Source of the DNA: Gongronella butleri
Lineage: Eukaryota; Mucoromycota; Mucoromycetes; Mucorales; Cunninghamellaceae
Assembly (NCBI GenBank): GCA_025201375.1
Contig: JAIWZP010000049.1
Coordinates: 1 to 64,000, forward strand
Reading direction: 5' to 3'
Length of the DNA: 64,000 nucleotides
Within the stretch, counting starts at the first letter, position 1; every line of letters starts with the position of its first letter. Shown piece after piece: positions 8,893 to 49,695 of the stretch. A model generated the notes under the pieces. The model searched no databases. It saw only the letters and a program-made list of their open reading frames with translations, and had not been told where the DNA came from. The translations under genes were made by a program, and so were the position numbers.

Positions 8893-9297
8893 CTCCGCTG
8901 TGACTGGTCTCTTTTACCACTTCAAAAAAAACATCTTCGCGATTGCCTTTATTGGGTCAAGAGAGAATTGATTGGGTGACTTTCTTGGGAGTGCTATTGT
9001 GACAAAAAAATCGACGCGTCTTCGCCGTTGTTTCTCCGTTTCAACAGGCGTGGCGCAGTAAGGGGATTCTCTGAATTGTTTTGTTCGTGCACTGCCCTCC
9101 TATAATAGCCAACAAGAAGGCCATGAGGGTAGAAAACCATTATTGGTATGGGTGAGAGTCATGGGTATGAGGATATAAAAAAGAAAAAAAAATGGGCAGG
9201 GGGACAAAAAAATTAGGGATCATAAAAGTTGAGTGAGCGGGGATACGTGTTCTTTTGCTCTTCTTCCCTCTTTCTTTCTTTTCCCACACGGTCCAAC
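8893..9297. other. Divergent promoter region (Q/H-rich gene and Fanzor)
   Basis: A 405-bp spacer between the minus-strand Q/H-rich gene and the plus-strand Fanzor gene. It contains GACGCGTC at 9013-9020, an MluI cell-cycle-box-like core, and a GATATAAAAAAG TATA-like stretch near 9171, about 125 bp before the Fanzor ATG. No terminal inverted repeat or target duplication was visible at the Fanzor side. Confidence 0.4.
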
Positions 9298-12200
9298 ATG
9301 CCCTATTTTTCTTTGGTGAAGCAGAAGCTCGATGCCAAGGCACGTGCTACCGAAGAACAAGAGCAAGGCGGAGGGGAGTCTGCCGCGACGTCGGATCGCG
9401 TCGATCAGCAAAGCGAGACGACGGGTGGACAAGGCGATAGCGAGACCAGTGGTAAACAAAGCGTGAAAGGGCTCATTTCCGCTGATCACTCCTTCTCATT
9501 TGTTGTCTTTTTTTTTTTTTTATGATCATAGACAAGCGCTCAAAAAAGGGCAAAAGTCGCATGACAACCAAGAGAAAGCAAAAGAGCGACGAGAAGAAGA
9601 CCAAGATCAGCGCCAAGGAAGATTTTGCGGCGGCGACCAAGGCAAGCTCTGCGGCTGTGAAGAATCCTTGCCCTCGCTGCAAGAGCGCGGCTGACCGGCT
9701 GGATGGCGAGGCGACTGCGATGATCGAGGGACATGCAGACCCCGCTGCTGCTCAGGACGATCCCGAGGTGGAGCGCCTACGCGCCGAGGCCAAGGCGCGT
9801 CTCGAATTAGCCTATACCCACTCAAGACCTACGAATCAGCTCTGCCCGGATTACATCAAGTGCAAGTCGGTGAAAACAAAGGAGCGACTTGGCAAGACGC
9901 GTGCGTCAACCATCAAGCACGGATTGCGTACGCTTCTGCGCGACGACATCCCGGAAGACGACAAGGACGCGTTCATGGACGGCATCCAGGACATTGTCAA
10001 GTTCAATCGCCACCTCACCATCCACGCCATGCTATTTACCCGCCAATATGTCATTGACCTCCTTGACACGGGTACCCACGTCCCACGTGCGCTCTTTTCG
10101 CAAGAATTTTTCCATGCCGTGTTCCAATTGCTTCTTGGCGACTCTGTGACCAACAAAGCGCTATTTGCTGACAACGAGACTCGCACCAGCTTCCTAGAGG
10201 CCTTTACCCGCTTCAAAAGCGACCATCCAGCGATCAGCATCTCCAAGCCCCGCGGTGTCAATGGCAAGCCCAATGCGTTTACAGGTGTTACGGTATACAC
10301 GGCGAAAGAATTGGCCGTCATGATGAAGAACATGGTCGTGGAGAACTTTGAGGTGTTGTATATGCGCTACCTTGCAGCCAAGTTTGCCATTGAGCACCCA
10401 GTAAGCACAAAGGGGGAAGAAAAATGTTCATGGTGGGCCCCTTCTCATTGTTTTCGTTTTTTTTTTTTTTTTTGTTTCAGGACCTCAAGCCGTATCAGTG
10501 CCGTGCGTACGCCATGTATGCTTATGACAAAGCCGCCAAGGACGCGATGTTTCCGCCTGAGCTCCCTGACTACAAAACGTTGAAGGCGGCGCAAAAGGAG
10601 AAGCTGAAGGAAGACGCCGACGACTTGGCCCAGCACGCAGAGTCGCAATGGGCCCGCGTCTATGATTTTGTCGTCGAAGAAAAGGCTCAGATTGCCGAAG
10701 CCTCGCGCAAGCGGCAAGAAGCCAATGATCGGGCGCGCGAAATGTCCCTGGCCAACCGCAATGCGATTATTGCCGCTTTGACCTTTGGCTCACCCGCTCC
10801 CCAGACGTCGCCTGCGCCAGAGATGGTCGTCGCCGAGTCATCTGCCGGCGCACAAGCTGCTGCTGCCATTGCCGCACAAGAAGCTACCATTGCCGCCCAA
10901 GATGCTGCCATTGCCGCCCTAGAAGCTGCCATCTTTCAAGGTGATGCCCTGCAAGCCGCCGCATTGCAATCCGCACGCGATCGAGCGGCCGAATTGCATG
11001 CTGCCGCCGCCGAGGCACAAGTCGCCGCGATGGCTCAAGCACAACAAACAGAATTTGCTGGCAACGTGGCCGCGACGATGCATGTTGCCGCGCGGAACGC
11101 GTACGCGGCATACAATGCATGTGCGCATGCCGCAAACATCCATCATACAACCGTGATCCCAGTTTTGGCCGATGCAGCACGTGCTGCACGTGCAGCCTTG
11201 GAACAAGCACACGTCGCAATGGCCGCCATCGAGCAAGAGTCGTTTCGGCAAGCAGACCAAGCACATCGTGACGCATTGGGCTATTCAGCAATGCTTGTGG
11301 CCACCGTTGAAAATGCACAGCGTAACGCAGACGCATCTCACCGATTTGCCCAGCAAGCTGCGCAAGACCACGCCGCATCGATCGCATTGTCCACAGCCAA
11401 GAACGCCACCGCCGAGGCAGCTGCCACAGACGCAGCAGATGCAGACGCCCATGTCGCAACCATCATGGCCGCCATTGCCGCCGCCAACGACGACGACCAC
11501 GAGGACGACGAGGACCATCCAATGGAAATCGAGCCTTTGGACGAGGACGAGGACGAGGACGTTTCCATGACGCATGCATCGGACGCCATGTCCACGAGCA
11601 CCATCGGCACCACAGCCATGGCAGGTCTCCAAGTCGCCGACCGCTTGGCCGTCACAACCGCCACACTGACACGATACCCGCACTTTTTCATGGAAATCCT
11701 GTTTGATGCCCTCAAGCAGATGGAGGCTTGGAATGACGAGGATGCGGCCAAACCCGCAGAGGTCGCCACCGAGGCCACGTACGCCTGGACCAAGCATCAG
11801 CTCGAAAAAAAGGTGCCTGCCTGGATCAATCTCAACTTTCGCCGCCGATCGCGCCTCACACGCGTCATCACAAAGATCATCAATGGCAACGACGACACGC
11901 TGGACATCACACGTCTCCCATACCAAAACCAATTGGTCGGCCAGCCGTCCAAAGACGCCATCCACGCCATTGTCACCGAAACCAAGCAAAAAATCAAAAA
12001 CAAGACCTTTAAGCCAGAAATCTACATTGCCCGCCGTGCCATCCGCCTCTTTGCCATCGTCCCAGCCCCTTCATTCCGATGGCGGTACATCCATTTGTCG
12101 CATCAATCTCTTTTTGCTCTTTTGCGATTTGTGGGCCTCACCAGGTACAAACAAGGCAATGAAAAAGCTCCAGACGATGGTTCTATGCATCCTGTGTTCG

Positions 12201-13803
12201 AGCGACTGTTCAATTGGACGAAAATTCAAAAGTAAAAGATGGACAACAGCACAAAAAACAAAAACAAAAAACAAAAAAAGCGATTTACATTTTTTTTTAT
12301 TTTTTTTATTTTTTTTTCCCTTCAGGCCCAAGACAGCTGTCTTTGACAATGCACTGGCCACGGATGGCATGGTGACATCGGTGTATTATCGCATTCCAGT
12401 CACCGGCAAGGCTTTCCCCGAGCTTACATTGGACGATATCCATCCCGAGGATCTCAAGCGGTGCCACGTTTGGGGCGTTGACCCCGGTGTCAATGAGGTC
12501 TTTGTCGCAGTAGATGGATCCAGCCACCAGGACGGCATTTATGGCGCCACACGCCCAAGATTGCCGCGACTTCCCCGCTCCGCTGGCATCCGAGTGCGTT
12601 CATCGTCTGTTGCACCAGACATGCGAGGCCGTGAGCGTGATCCGCAAGCGACAAGGAAGAGATCAGCCTCTTTGCCACCCAATCGGTCTCGCCCCACGAC
12701 GGAGATGGCGCAAGCACATCAAGTTAGAAGCTTTTCGACTCGAGAGTTCTTCCATGTCGCTGGCATCACGCGGACCAACCAAAGGCTCAAGGCGCTCAAG
12801 GCAAATGCTACAGACCAAGAAGAGATGACGATCGCACAGCTCGAGTCGAATTTGGCAAGCGCCAAAACCACCATCCCAGCGAGAATGGCCATGCACGTCC
12901 AAAGTGTGTTGGCTGCCCTGCCACGGCTCTTTGCCTTTTATGGACAAGCCCATCAAGGACTAAGATTCCTCAATTTCCAAGGACGTCAACGCGCTCTCCA
13001 AGAGATGGTGGCTATTCTTTGCCACGGTGGACAAAAGTACAAGCCCAAAGACACCACAGGGCCCCGGCCTGCAGACCAACAAGATGGTCCAAGGTAAGGG
13101 CGAGAGCACGAGTGAACCAGCTGCCCCGAAAATCTTGCCATTGACTCTTTTTCTTTCTCTTTTTTCTTTCTTCTTTTTTTTTTTTTTTTCTCTTTTTGCT
13201 TTTTTGACGCATAGCGAGCAGGCGCCAGGCACTACACAAGGAGATTTGAAGTAAGAGAGCACGAGCAAGCGGGTTGGCACGAGAGACATTGAATTGAACT
13301 TTTTTTTTTTGACTTGCAGGTGGCGCAAGGAGCCCAATCGTCGAGATTTTGCCGCTTGCCCGCTCATCTGCATCGGCGACGCGCAGCTCAAGCGGCTCAA
13401 TTGGCGCGGCAAGCCGAGCAGCCGTGTTGCCCTCCTCCGCCGTGGATTGGCGCTCGCCCAGCGCGCATGTCGCCTGATCGTCGTCCAGGTGCCAGAGGGA
13501 TACACCAGCAAGACCTGTTCGTCCTGCGGTCGCCGTTCCGTGATAAACATGACAAAGCGCGACAGTGGCATAGACACATTCAAGCTGCACAGTGTGCTTA
13601 CCTGTGAATGGTGCGCACGCAAGTGGCAGCGGGATGTGAACGCTGCGCGCAACATCCGCTCGATCGCCATCATGCGCATTGCCAGCCGCGGTGTCCCTGC
13701 TTTGGATGCCAAAAACAACCCCGAGTCGCGCCCACACGTCTTTACAAAGGCATTTGTCGACCCCGACTCACAGCACCCACCTTACTGGCTACAACAAAAG
13801 TAG
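9298..13803 (+). CDS. Fanzor nuclease (eukaryotic TnpB-like, RNA-guided DNA endonuclease family)
   Basis: Six exons join in phase: 9298-9451, 9532-10400, 10481-12231, 12326-13093, 13215-13250 and 13320-13803, encoding 1353 aa. The C-terminal RuvC/zinc-ribbon module is clear: CHVWGVDPGVNEVF (RuvC-I, Asp977), VPEGYTSKTCSSCG (Glu1252; Cys1259/Cys1262), LTCEWCARKW (Cys1288/Cys1291) and QRDVNAARNIRSI (RuvC-III, Asp1298). Conserved Fanzor blocks also include TDGMVTSVYYR, SFSTREFFHVAGITRTNQR and ALPRLFAFYG before a GRQRA motif. Fanzors are guided by a noncoding RNA and cut DNA; here that is inferred from family. Oddities: extra N-terminal cysteines (C98PRC101, C156/C162), an Ala-rich helix-like insertion of roughly residues 445-680 followed by an acidic tract, and a 36-nt exon 5. 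Residues about 990-1050 are Arg/Pro/Ser-rich and may be mis-spliced or an insertion. Host-like composition and introns suggest long residence. Confidence 0.88.
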
Positions 13804-14071
13804 CCACGTTTTATTGACTTCCGCCAGGTCGTCTAGTAAGTTGACAAAAAAAAAAAAACAAGAGCATTGCCTAGTCGGGAAAGTGGGGACCTTAGAGCCT
13901 GTTTTGTAAACATATGATTGGTCGCTAACTTTTTGCATTTTTTGCAGGTCAGAAGATACACGCGCACTTCAATAAATATTTACTCTAAGTCACACTCTCT
14001 ACGTTTTGACAGGTTTGCCCCTTTCTTTCTCTCTCTTTTCTTTTTCATCTTTCTACTTCTTTTTCTTCACA
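13804..14071 (+). other. Fanzor 3' flank, candidate guide-RNA region
   Basis: In known Fanzor and TnpB loci the guide RNA is transcribed from the 3' end of the gene and the flank beyond it. This 268-bp spacer before CCT2 is where such an RNA would be sought. I see GC-containing stem-prone sequence (13804-13850, 13866-13895) but did not derive a fold. It also contains the CCT2 promoter. The assignment is by position only. Confidence 0.25.
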
Positions 14072-48284: not shown

Positions 48285-48577
48285 GATGAAGGTCTGGGGG
48301 GGGGAAGGGGAAAAAGGTACAAAAAAGACGGAAAATGTACAACAAAGCGAAAGAAAGGCGTCCCCTTCTTTGGTGACGTCCTCCACTGGGAAAAAAAAAA
48401 GGTCAGTGGCCAATGAAAATGCAAGAATCCAATTGCTATGCTCCCCCCTCTCTTTCCCCCTCTCTTGCTTACATTTTTATTTTTATATAAAAGCGGAGGC
48501 GTGTCCGGCTTTTGCGGCCGGCATCAAGTAACATTATATGATATGGTAAACACTATTGGACGGGACGCCGGATTTGT

Positions 48578-48733
48578 CTAGGGGTTGACATGGCTGAGGC
48601 TGTTGCCCAGGATGGCGAGCTTGGCGAGCGCCCGGATATTTCGGGCGGGATTCACGTCGCGTTGCCAAAATCGGGCGCAGCGTTCGCAGGCTACAACCGA
48701 GTTTGCGACAAGCAACGGAATTATTGTAGGTGA
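48578..48733 (-). pseudogene. Fanzor C-terminal relic (second lineage)
   Basis: An open stretch of 51 codons plus stop, not led by ATG, reads PLLVANSVVACERCARFWQR then DVNPARNIRALAKLAILGNS. It matches the zinc-ribbon second CxxC and RuvC-III block of the intact Fanzor at 9298 (LTCEWCARKWQRDVNAARNI). The catalytic Asp is retained. The preceding in-frame codon is TAG and the first CxxC and RuvC-I/II parts are missing, so it is truncated. The two copies differ strongly at both DNA and protein level, so this is not a recent copy. Stop at 48578-48580. Confidence 0.75.
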
Positions 48734-49695
48734 CTACACGATCTTCTAGGCGATGATGACCCAGTTGAAAAGTAATACCGAGGACTGAAATAATGAGCAC
48801 AAAACGTGATCGATCAAAATATTTAATTTTTTTTTACTGCAAAAGAGCATCTTGTTACAAGAGACAGATTAAAAGTACAAGCCGATTCGGTTCGATTTAA
48901 AAACCCTGAGGCGGATGCATGGCACCGCGGGATGTCAAATAAAATAAGTGATTTTAATTGTAAACCATGAATGTACAGTACAAAGAAAAAACACCGCATT
49001 TTGCACCGTGGTCACACCGCGCCCGAATTGCAAGACCGCGTGCATCCTGCAGATCATTTCATTTTGTGGACATTGCCCTTGGCCATCGTCGTAAAAAAAA
49101 ATGTGTACGGCATGAATAAACCTATGATAGTGGCGAGATCAACGACGTCATTATTCAAACACCGGCCGAGCACAAGAGGGGTTCCATTGCCCCGTTTGGC
49201 TTCATGGAGCGAACCTCTTTCGTTTACCAGCGGATCAATTCTATTTTGGGATACTTTATTGACGTCAGGCATGAATCCCAGGAATTACCGAGAGAACAGT
49301 AATGCGAAAAAGGCATTGCCCTCTGCCAATGTAAAGGAAAAATGTTCTGTGATTTACTCAAGTGTGCGTCGCTTTCAGCTCATATTTATGCGTTTTCGAA
49401 TGGATCTCTCGAAATAAACGCATCAGGCTGGAATGCGCGACGTCCTTGTAGCGCGTGGAGCTGAATTATTCCTGCGAAATGAAAACAAGTACGCGTGATT
49501 TTACATAAAAAATAAGTCATTGACACGTGGCAGAGCAATGCAATGATACAATGAATCGCAGAAAATGTAAGGAATGACCCCACATGGATTGGAATACCCT
49601 GATTTTTATGATTCAATCCACATTTCCAGTGAGATTACAGTATCAAAATTCAATGTGTCCTGCGACTTAATTGGTAAAATGCACAATATCTAACC
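48734..49695. other. Gene-free stretch beside the Fanzor relic
   Basis: No recognisable further Fanzor blocks or other genes. Short open frames on both strands near 49000-49400 have no motif I recognise. Confidence 0.4.

What the first reader, a model, noticed from the sequence alone, without database searches (positions are those of the whole stretch)
9298..13803. Apparently intact intron-bearing Fanzor nuclease with a full RuvC triad
Seen: in-phase six-exon gene, no internal stop, Asp977, Glu1252 and Asp1298 in the expected motifs and two CxxC pairs. Known: Fanzors are eukaryotic relatives of TnpB, RNA-guided DNA endonucleases, in which the RuvC glutamate lies just ahead of the zinc ribbon, as VPEGYTSK does here. 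Inference: the gene is a candidate active nuclease, and with no terminal repeats visible it may be immobile and host-retained rather than a current transposon.
Basis: partly seen in the sequence, partly recalled or inferred. Interest (0 to 1): 0.9.

Follow-up and report, generated by a model that had tools for sequence, protein, structure and literature searches.

The report
Fungal Fanzor transposon, possible terminal intron
This is an intact gene for a Fanzor, an RNA-guided DNA-cutting enzyme, carried by a multi-copy jumping gene of the fungus Gongronella butleri; the stretch where its guide RNA should lie carries the signals of an intron that ends at the jumping gene's edge, so splicing might switch the guide off.

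Summary
The six-exon, 1353-aa gene is real. It has both published Fanzor fingerprints (DPG; a glutamate six residues before the zinc ribbon), an intact D977/E1252/D1298 triad, profile matches to GtFz1 and SpuFz1, and dN/dS of 0.12-0.46 in the 8 computable paralogue pairs. The "immobile, host-retained" inference is not supported: the gene lies in a 5.03-kb terminal-inverted-repeat element (8918-13947) with at least 15 other Fanzor loci in the same genome, identified as Gongronella butleri.

The unexpected finding is the right end, where other Fanzor1 elements encode the ωRNA. It reads like a 3'UTR spliceosomal intron whose acceptor is the transposon terminus. In the 9 copies whose right end was delimited by copy comparison: GTAAG donor 8 of 9, CTNAY branch motif 9 of 9, terminal YAG 9 of 9. 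Nine left ends: 0, 1 and 1. A scan of the whole window finds the full signature at 13 places, two being its two Fanzor right ends. Splicing would cut the ωRNA scaffold from its flank-derived guide, as in bacterial IStrons. No RNA data were available, no conserved RNA structure was found, and both AlphaFold models were unusable.

The parts
8918..13947 (+). Fanzor-only TIR transposon (5030 bp in this copy)
   Evidence: Homology to copy C39a (90%) runs 8918-13947 and stops at both ends; the left border at 8918 is also reached by C75.
8918..8935 (+). Left terminal inverted repeat, CACTTCAAAAAAAACATC
   Evidence: Aligned with CACTGCAAAAAAAAA / CACAGCAAAAAAAAA of C75, C71, C1.
13938..13947 (+). Right terminal inverted repeat, TTTTTTGCAG (the TG present in the other copies of this group is missing here)
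9298..9451 (+). Exon 1
   Evidence: the ATG is shared by five aligned copies.
9532..10400 (+). Exon 2
10481..12231 (+). Exon 3, including the alanine-rich and acidic region
10715..11617 (+). Ala-rich/acidic insertion, residues about 420-720, mosaic between copies
   Evidence: Identity windows; the C16 and C100 families lack most of it.
12326..13093 (+). Exon 4, RuvC-I with D977 (DPG motif) at 12480-12482
12534..12731 (+). Proline- and arginine-rich insertion after RuvC-I (residues about 995-1060)
   Evidence: Seen in six G. butleri rows of alignment A3, absent in the Hesseltinella relative P0005.
13215..13250 (+). Exon 5, 36-nt micro-exon
   Evidence: also readable in C39a, C71, C75, C1, and not in C39b, C68, C16, C100, C15, which have one intron there.
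13320..13803 (+). Exon 6: E1252 (13495-13497), C4 zinc ribbon, D1298 (13633-13635), stop TAG 13801-13803
13836..13947 (+). Candidate 3'UTR intron (112 nt): donor GTAAGT 32 nt after the stop, branch-like CTAAC 13925-13929, acceptor GCAG at the element end
   Evidence: Inferred; no RNA evidence.
13877..13947 (+). Candidate ωRNA scaffold (conserved non-coding block); guide would be the flank just beyond
   Evidence: Block conservation in 13 right ends and position as in known Fanzor1 loci. No consensus fold.
48384..48780 (-). Second, decayed Fanzor remnant: C-terminal piece with an in-frame stop near 48578-48580, right end with donor GTAAGC at 48472 and acceptor ending 48386
   Evidence: Pattern hit, read; protein search did not list it. 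Upper limit approximate.

Best explanation
The gene encodes a Fanzor1 nuclease carried as the only gene of a TIR transposon family in Gongronella butleri. Most likely it works like other Fanzor1s: it binds an ωRNA made from the element's right end plus about 15 nt of flanking sequence, cuts the matching empty site with its RuvC domain, and so helps the element to be copied back after excision by a transposase supplied from elsewhere. In this family the ωRNA region sits inside a 3'UTR intron whose 3' splice site is the transposon's right terminus. A spliced transcript is a stable Fanzor mRNA that has lost the scaffold and its link to the guide; an unspliced one is an ωRNA precursor, so splicing and guide making would be alternative fates. 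Shown here: gene, triad, family, TIRs, purifying selection, intron signals. Inferred: ωRNA, cleavage, splicing, antagonism. Rough odds: Fanzor1 nuclease 0.95; mobile family 0.95; right end holds the ωRNA scaffold 0.75; the intron is really spliced 0.65; the antagonism matters biologically 0.4.
For: Gene and triad: (D, P, G, E, D kept in nearly all aligned copies; C1b has Q for E1252, C24 has D for the G). Family: profile of 7 C-terminal halves hits GtFz1 at 7.9e-6 and SpuFz1 at 2.5e-4, with DPG and VPE...TS aligned to GtFz1; DPG and the glutamate six residues before the zinc ribbon are the published fingerprint. Mobility. Selection: dN/dS 0.32 C55-C39a, 0.20 C55-C71, 0.12 C55-C39b; on the C55 branch alone 41 synonymous and 37 non-synonymous changes, ratio 0.27. 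Intron: of 16 right ends all have GTAAG (14) or GTAAA (2), all have CTNAY 20-37 nt before the end, and 14 have YAG at the end as the first AG after the branch motif; in the 9 right ends delimited by copy comparison YAG is 9 of 9, while nine left ends read outward give GTAAG 0, CTNAY 1, YAG 1. Ten lineages: GTAAG 10 of 10, 1.33 expected by dinucleotide shuffling, 0 of 10 antisense. Scan of the window on both strands: 13 of 2348 YAG positions carry the full signature; two are the two Fanzor right ends, four others coincide with introns readable in the Fanzor gene and neighbouring genes, seven were not examined. Stop-to-donor distance 17-42 nt in 9 of 10 measured copies, 68 in one, which would fit avoidance of nonsense-mediated decay (general knowledge).
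Against: No RNA data: neither splicing nor an ωRNA was observed. RNAalifold finds no consensus structure and single folds are no more stable than shuffles (z between -1.97 and +1.70). Part of the acceptor is set by the inverted repeat itself. Seven of the 16 right ends (C16, C24, C100, C15, C1b, C47, C55g) were placed by resemblance to the others, so their terminal YAG is not independent; C1b and C47 lack it; the signature limits were chosen after seeing the right ends; the lineages share descent. The more distant pair C2/C32b (PF07282 only) does not end in YAG. The best PDB profile hit is LaTranC (1.6e-6), matched in the zinc-ribbon part only, and the RuvC-I segment alone is weak against GtFz1. 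No transposase with the same termini was found.
Confidence: 0.55

Rival explanations
1. An ordinary Fanzor1 transposon: right-end conservation reflects only the ωRNA and transposase binding sites; the intron-like signals are by-products of the T-rich inverted repeat and are not spliced.
For: TIR alone gives T-run and C-A-G-T-G; a GATTGG-type motif lies near both ends in several copies (ATTGG in the first 110 nt of 8 of 9 left ends), as expected of subterminal protein sites; known Fanzor1 loci place the ωRNA here without an intron being reported.
Against: The left inverted repeat does not keep YAG (1 of 9) while the right does (9 of 9); the GTAAG hexamer context stands alone between unconserved stretches; branch motif at the right distance in 16 of 16.
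Confidence: 0.3
2. The right-end GTAAG is a U1 site that blocks early polyadenylation so that transcription runs into the flank and makes the guide; no splicing is needed.
For: AATAAA- or AATAAAA-like strings lie directly upstream of the donor in C100, C16, C18, C23 and C55g.
Against: Does not explain the branch motif and YAG at the terminus; C55, C71, C75, C1, C15, C47 and C68 lack an adjacent AATAAA.
Confidence: 0.12
3. The right end has become a promoter or 5'UTR intron of the downstream host gene (here a TCP-1 chaperonin gene, probable ATG 14072).
For: In 4 of 16 right flanks an ORF on the same strand starts within about 150 bp (C55, C55g, C16, C24); C55 flank is TCP-1/cpn60.
Against: 12 of 16 right flanks show no such ORF by eye; the signals are as strong in those.
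Confidence: 0.1
4. Host-retained, immobile Fanzor with a cellular job.
For: C55 lacks an exact target-site duplication and two terminal bases, yet keeps an open, selected frame.
Against: Fifteen further loci, several nearly identical pairs, TIRs and target-site duplications. No other species could be compared.
Confidence: 0.05

Closest known systems
SpuFz1 and the Spu-1 element of Spizellomyces punctatus (PMC10432273: outline, sections 5, 7, 11 and passages seen)
   Same: Fanzor1 as the only gene of a TIR element, multi-copy, no transposase in the element, non-coding right end next to the guide, RuvC triad with the glutamate before the zinc ribbon.
   Different: SpuFz1 is one uninterrupted ORF of 633 aa with TA duplications; this protein is 1353 aa in six exons with 3-bp duplications and intron signals over the right end.
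GtFz1 of Guillardia theta (best Fanzor chain by profile)
   Same: DPG and VPE...TS motifs align.
   Different: GtFz1 has N for the third catalytic residue; here it is D1298.
PpFz1 of Parasitella parasitica, also Mucorales (PMC11423790, passages seen)
   Same: An extra segment inside RuvC; here proline-rich, after RuvC-I.
   Different: PpFz1 did not appear in the profile search of the PDB at E up to 1, so equivalence of the insertions is untested.
Fanzor1 elements of Mucor, Rhizopus and Phycomyces (PMC3627910: outline, section 12 and passages seen)
   Same: Fanzor1 in Mucorales DNA transposons, several families per genome.
   Different: Those described are MuDr-like with 9-bp duplications, or unclassified with 11-12- or 6-bp duplications; here CAC... 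termini and 3-bp duplications.
Bacterial IStrons (group I intron plus IS607/IS605-type element; Zedaveinyte et al. 2024, seen only as a reference-list entry, content recalled; PMC4227781 listing only)
   Same: A transposon whose guide-RNA region overlaps an intron ending at the element's right border, so splicing and guide RNA compete (recalled).
   Different: Self-splicing group I intron and TnpB there; spliceosomal signals and Fanzor here; here the intron covers the 3'UTR, not the whole element.

Membership tests
Fanzor | RuvC-I motif DPG | tested here: met
   D977-P978-G979; definition from PMC10711439 section 23.
Fanzor | RuvC-II glutamate six residues before the zinc ribbon | tested here: met
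   E1252, first Cys 1259.
Fanzor | TnpB-like C4 zinc ribbon followed by RD | tested here: met
   PF07282 1.3e-10; C1259, C1262, C1288, C1291, R1297-D1298.
Fanzor | Triad clusters in a RuvC fold | tested here: inconclusive
   AlphaFold of relative P0005 gave mean pLDDT 37.6 alone and 45.2 with 19 rows; no fold search was run.
Fanzor1 | Closest solved relatives are Fanzor1s | tested here: met
   Among Fanzor chains GtFz1 7.9e-6 and SpuFz1 2.5e-4; overall best is LaTranC 1.6e-6 in the zinc ribbon only. No tree was built.
Fanzor1 | Carried by a eukaryotic transposon, not IS607 | tested here: met
   TIRs, and 3-bp duplications in 4 of 9 copies.
Fanzor1 | ωRNA from the right end with flank-derived guide, RNA-guided cleavage | not testable with these tools
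   Only a conserved non-coding block is shown.
CACTA/EnSpm transposons | TIR starting CACT(A/G) and 3-bp target-site duplication (definition recalled) | tested here: inconclusive
   Right termini read CACTG or CACTA inwards in most copies, left ones CACTT, CACAG, CACTG, CACAT; 3-bp duplications exact in 4 of 9.
CACTA/EnSpm transposons | Matching transposase | tested here: inconclusive
   PF02992 has 10 matches in the genome, 8 over the cut-off; the one pair whose ends were read ends in CACCGGGG, not this TIR. PF18759: none, control rang nowhere.
IStron-like (intron overlapping the guide-RNA region at the element border) | Splice signals bordering the right terminus | tested here: met
IStron-like (intron overlapping the guide-RNA region at the element border) | Splicing restores the interrupted host transcript | tested here: not met
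   No donor near the left end (GTAAG 0 of 9); the intron would remove only the right end, so this is not an IStron proper.

The most novel reading that the evidence does not exclude
A eukaryotic, spliceosome-based counterpart of the IStron conflict: a Fanzor transposon family keeps its ωRNA scaffold inside a 3'UTR intron whose 3' splice site is its own right terminus, so each transcript becomes either mRNA or guide RNA, and the host's splicing machinery sets nuclease activity. The element would also join its mRNA to whatever host sequence lies downstream.
Probability: 0.4. Interest if true: 0.85.

Novelty: new variant of a known kind. Interest (0 to 1): 0.6.

Why it matters
The biological role and regulation of Fanzors are stated to be unknown in the founding paper. 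A conserved splice site at the very edge of the element gives a concrete, testable switch between nuclease mRNA and guide RNA, and an independent parallel to the bacterial intron-versus-guide conflict. It also shows that public gene models of this family lose the catalytic half at intron 3, so surveys that rely on annotated proteins will miss or misjudge such large, intron-bearing Fanzors.

Tried and rejected
Single-copy, domesticated gene: rejected. Terminal repeats by a repeat finder on this copy alone: only T-run noise; copy comparison was needed. First right-end alignment: two rows (C39a, C71) had wrong coordinates, replaced. Conserved RNA fold: none; one 7-sequence subset gave -5.86 kcal/mol with no favourable covariation. 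Structure: two AlphaFold jobs unusable, so no fold search. Transposase partner: not found. Introner-like reading (element splices itself out whole): rejected, no donor at left ends. Rows dropped: C28, C17, C32, C23b, C12 (right end not delimited or gene truncated) and C2/C32b (distant; right border without YAG) are not in the 16 right ends. Residues 1287 and 1290 tabulated are one off the cysteines; the second CxxC pair rests. Literature: 82 papers, 40 listed; 0 papers; 19 papers, 18 listed; 0; 7 papers, 6 listed; 10 papers; from the lists only PMC12633428 was opened (passages), so the absence of a report of a Fanzor 3'UTR intron holds for what I saw, not for all papers.
Full report
Gene. Pfam finds only the Cas12f1-like TNB domain PF07282 (1.3e-10). 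The single sequence finds in the PDB only GtFz1 at E=0.8, but a profile of seven C-terminal halves finds LaTranC (1.6e-6, zinc ribbon), GtFz1 (7.9e-6) and SpuFz1 (2.5e-4), with DPG, VPE...TS and the terminal D/N of GtFz1 in register; the RuvC-I segment alone is weak there. The two published Fanzor fingerprints, DPG and a glutamate six residues before the zinc ribbon, are both met. Structure prediction of a relative failed.

Organism. Two homologues with 71% identity are hypothetical proteins of Gongronella butleri. Their longest contigs, 1,600,514 and 138,756 bases, equal contigs C1 and C75 of the window's own genome, so the genome is that of G. butleri (Mucorales). Both models stop at the TAA that overlaps the intron-3 donor. 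Intron 3 is placed at the same position in 11 of 13 copies, and the RuvC half is open in 9 of 10 modelled copies, so that truncation is most likely an annotation error.

A mobile family. The protein matches 16 loci in the genome including this one (the tool calls its counts lower bounds), and PF07282 has 27 matches, 19 marked over the cut-off. C55 and C39a are 90% identical from 8918 to 13947 and unrelated outside. Ends read CAC[AT][GT]C plus an A-run on the left and a T-run plus GCAGTG on the right; C18/C23, C16 and C39b have related termini. Three-base duplications are exact in 4 of 9 copies and not in C55, C71, C75, C16, C39b. No transposase is encoded in the elements looked at, and the CACTA-type transposase elements of the genome whose ends were read have different termini.

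Selection. dN/dS over the whole alignable gene is 0.32 (C55-C39a), 0.29, 0.33, 0.32 (C71, C75, C1 among themselves), 0.28 (C39b-C68), 0.20 (C55-C71), 0.12 (C55-C39b) and 0.46 (C16-C24); C16-C100 is saturated. Some short segments are higher (C75-C1 zinc-ribbon part 1.30 and C71-C1 residues 721-922 0.78, from very few changes). On the C55 branch the ratio is 0.27, on the frameshifted C39a's branch 0.34. C55 is thus a selected, probably functional copy.

Right end. In characterised Fanzor1 loci the ωRNA is encoded between stop codon and right terminus, with the guide taken from the flank, and TIR and duplication can be part of the scaffold. Here this stretch holds a conserved block and, around it, splice signals: GTAAG 63-128 nt from the end in 14 of 16 copies (GTAAA in two), CTNAY 20-37 nt from the end in 16 of 16, and a terminal YAG that is the first AG after the branch motif in 14 of 16. 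Nine right ends were delimited by comparing copies (C55, C39a, C71, C75, C1, C39b, C68, C18, C23): YAG 9 of 9, GTAAG 8 of 9. The other seven were placed by resemblance, so their YAG is not independent. The control is the left end, which shares the inverted repeat: read outward, GTAAG 0 of 9, CTNAY 1 of 9, YAG 1 of 9. The asymmetry, with left termini drifting to CTG, AAG or ATG while right termini vary only between CAG and TAG, suggests selection on the acceptor beyond the inverted repeat. GTAAG is present in 10 of 10 lineages against 1.33 expected by dinucleotide shuffling and 0 of 10 on the other strand. A scan of the 64-kb window, both strands, finds the combined signature at 13 of 2348 YAG positions: the Fanzor right end, the right end of the second remnant, Fanzor intron 2, a chaperonin-gene intron, two introns readable beside the remnant, and seven not examined. 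The limits of that scan were set after seeing the right ends.

Mechanism. Splicing from 13836 to 13947 would remove the scaffold and join the 3'UTR to host sequence, so the guide, which lies beyond the terminus, can only stay attached in unspliced RNA. This predicts two exclusive products, Fanzor mRNA and ωRNA precursor. That resembles the conflict between group I introns and guide RNAs in bacterial IStrons (Zedaveinyte et al. 2024, cited, not read here). It differs in that no donor lies at the left end, so the element cannot splice itself out of a host transcript.

Other features. The protein is about twice the usual Fanzor1 size (600-700 aa), through a long N-terminal half and an Ala-rich, acidic region (residues about 420-720) that most divergent copies lack. 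That region is a mosaic: C55 and C71 are 57-82% identical in most other windows but 83-91% there, while C71 and C75, 94-100% elsewhere, fall to 78% at 540-599 where C39a and C71 share 92%. Gene conversion between copies is the simplest reading. A proline-rich insertion after RuvC-I recalls the cyclophilin-binding insertion of PpFz1, untested.

Verdict. A new, large, intron-bearing member of Fanzor1 in a recently mobile family; ordinary in kind, but with a right-end architecture for which I saw no report. Odds: Fanzor1 nuclease 0.95, real splicing at the terminus 0.65, biologically relevant splicing-versus-guide switch 0.4.

Noticed in passing
window 48384-48780, minus strand: A second Fanzor remnant with decayed coding part but well-kept right end (donor, scaffold-like block, branch motif, CCCAG at the terminus), about 100 bp upstream of a UEV-like gene (ATG 48284; Pfam UEV 3.6e-05, below its cut-off). 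A possible ghost ωRNA locus.
   Followed up: partly
window 10715-11617 and matching stretches of C39a, C71, C75, C1: Ala-rich region (and residues 120-179) far more alike between subfamilies than the rest of the gene, and mixed among close copies: gene conversion between transposon copies.
   Followed up: partly
right flanks of C55, C55g, C16, C24: Four of 16 right ends lie within about 150 bp upstream of a same-strand ORF start, here a TCP-1 chaperonin gene (probable ATG 14072).
   Followed up: partly
left flanks of C75, C71, C18, C23: The five bases 5' of the last three flank bases are GCGTC twice and GCTTC twice; a C lies four bases before the element in 6 of 7 copies (all but C55; C16 and C39b, not counted, have T and C). 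Possibly a target preference or target-adjacent motif.
   Followed up: no
C2:489573 and C32:248211 (L039, L041): A 93% identical pair with weak PF07282 matches, not similar to this Fanzor by tblastn, with other termini: perhaps another Fanzor family.
   Followed up: no
public records P0001, P0002: Hypothetical proteins of G. butleri that are Fanzors cut short at intron 3, without the RuvC half.
   Followed up: yes
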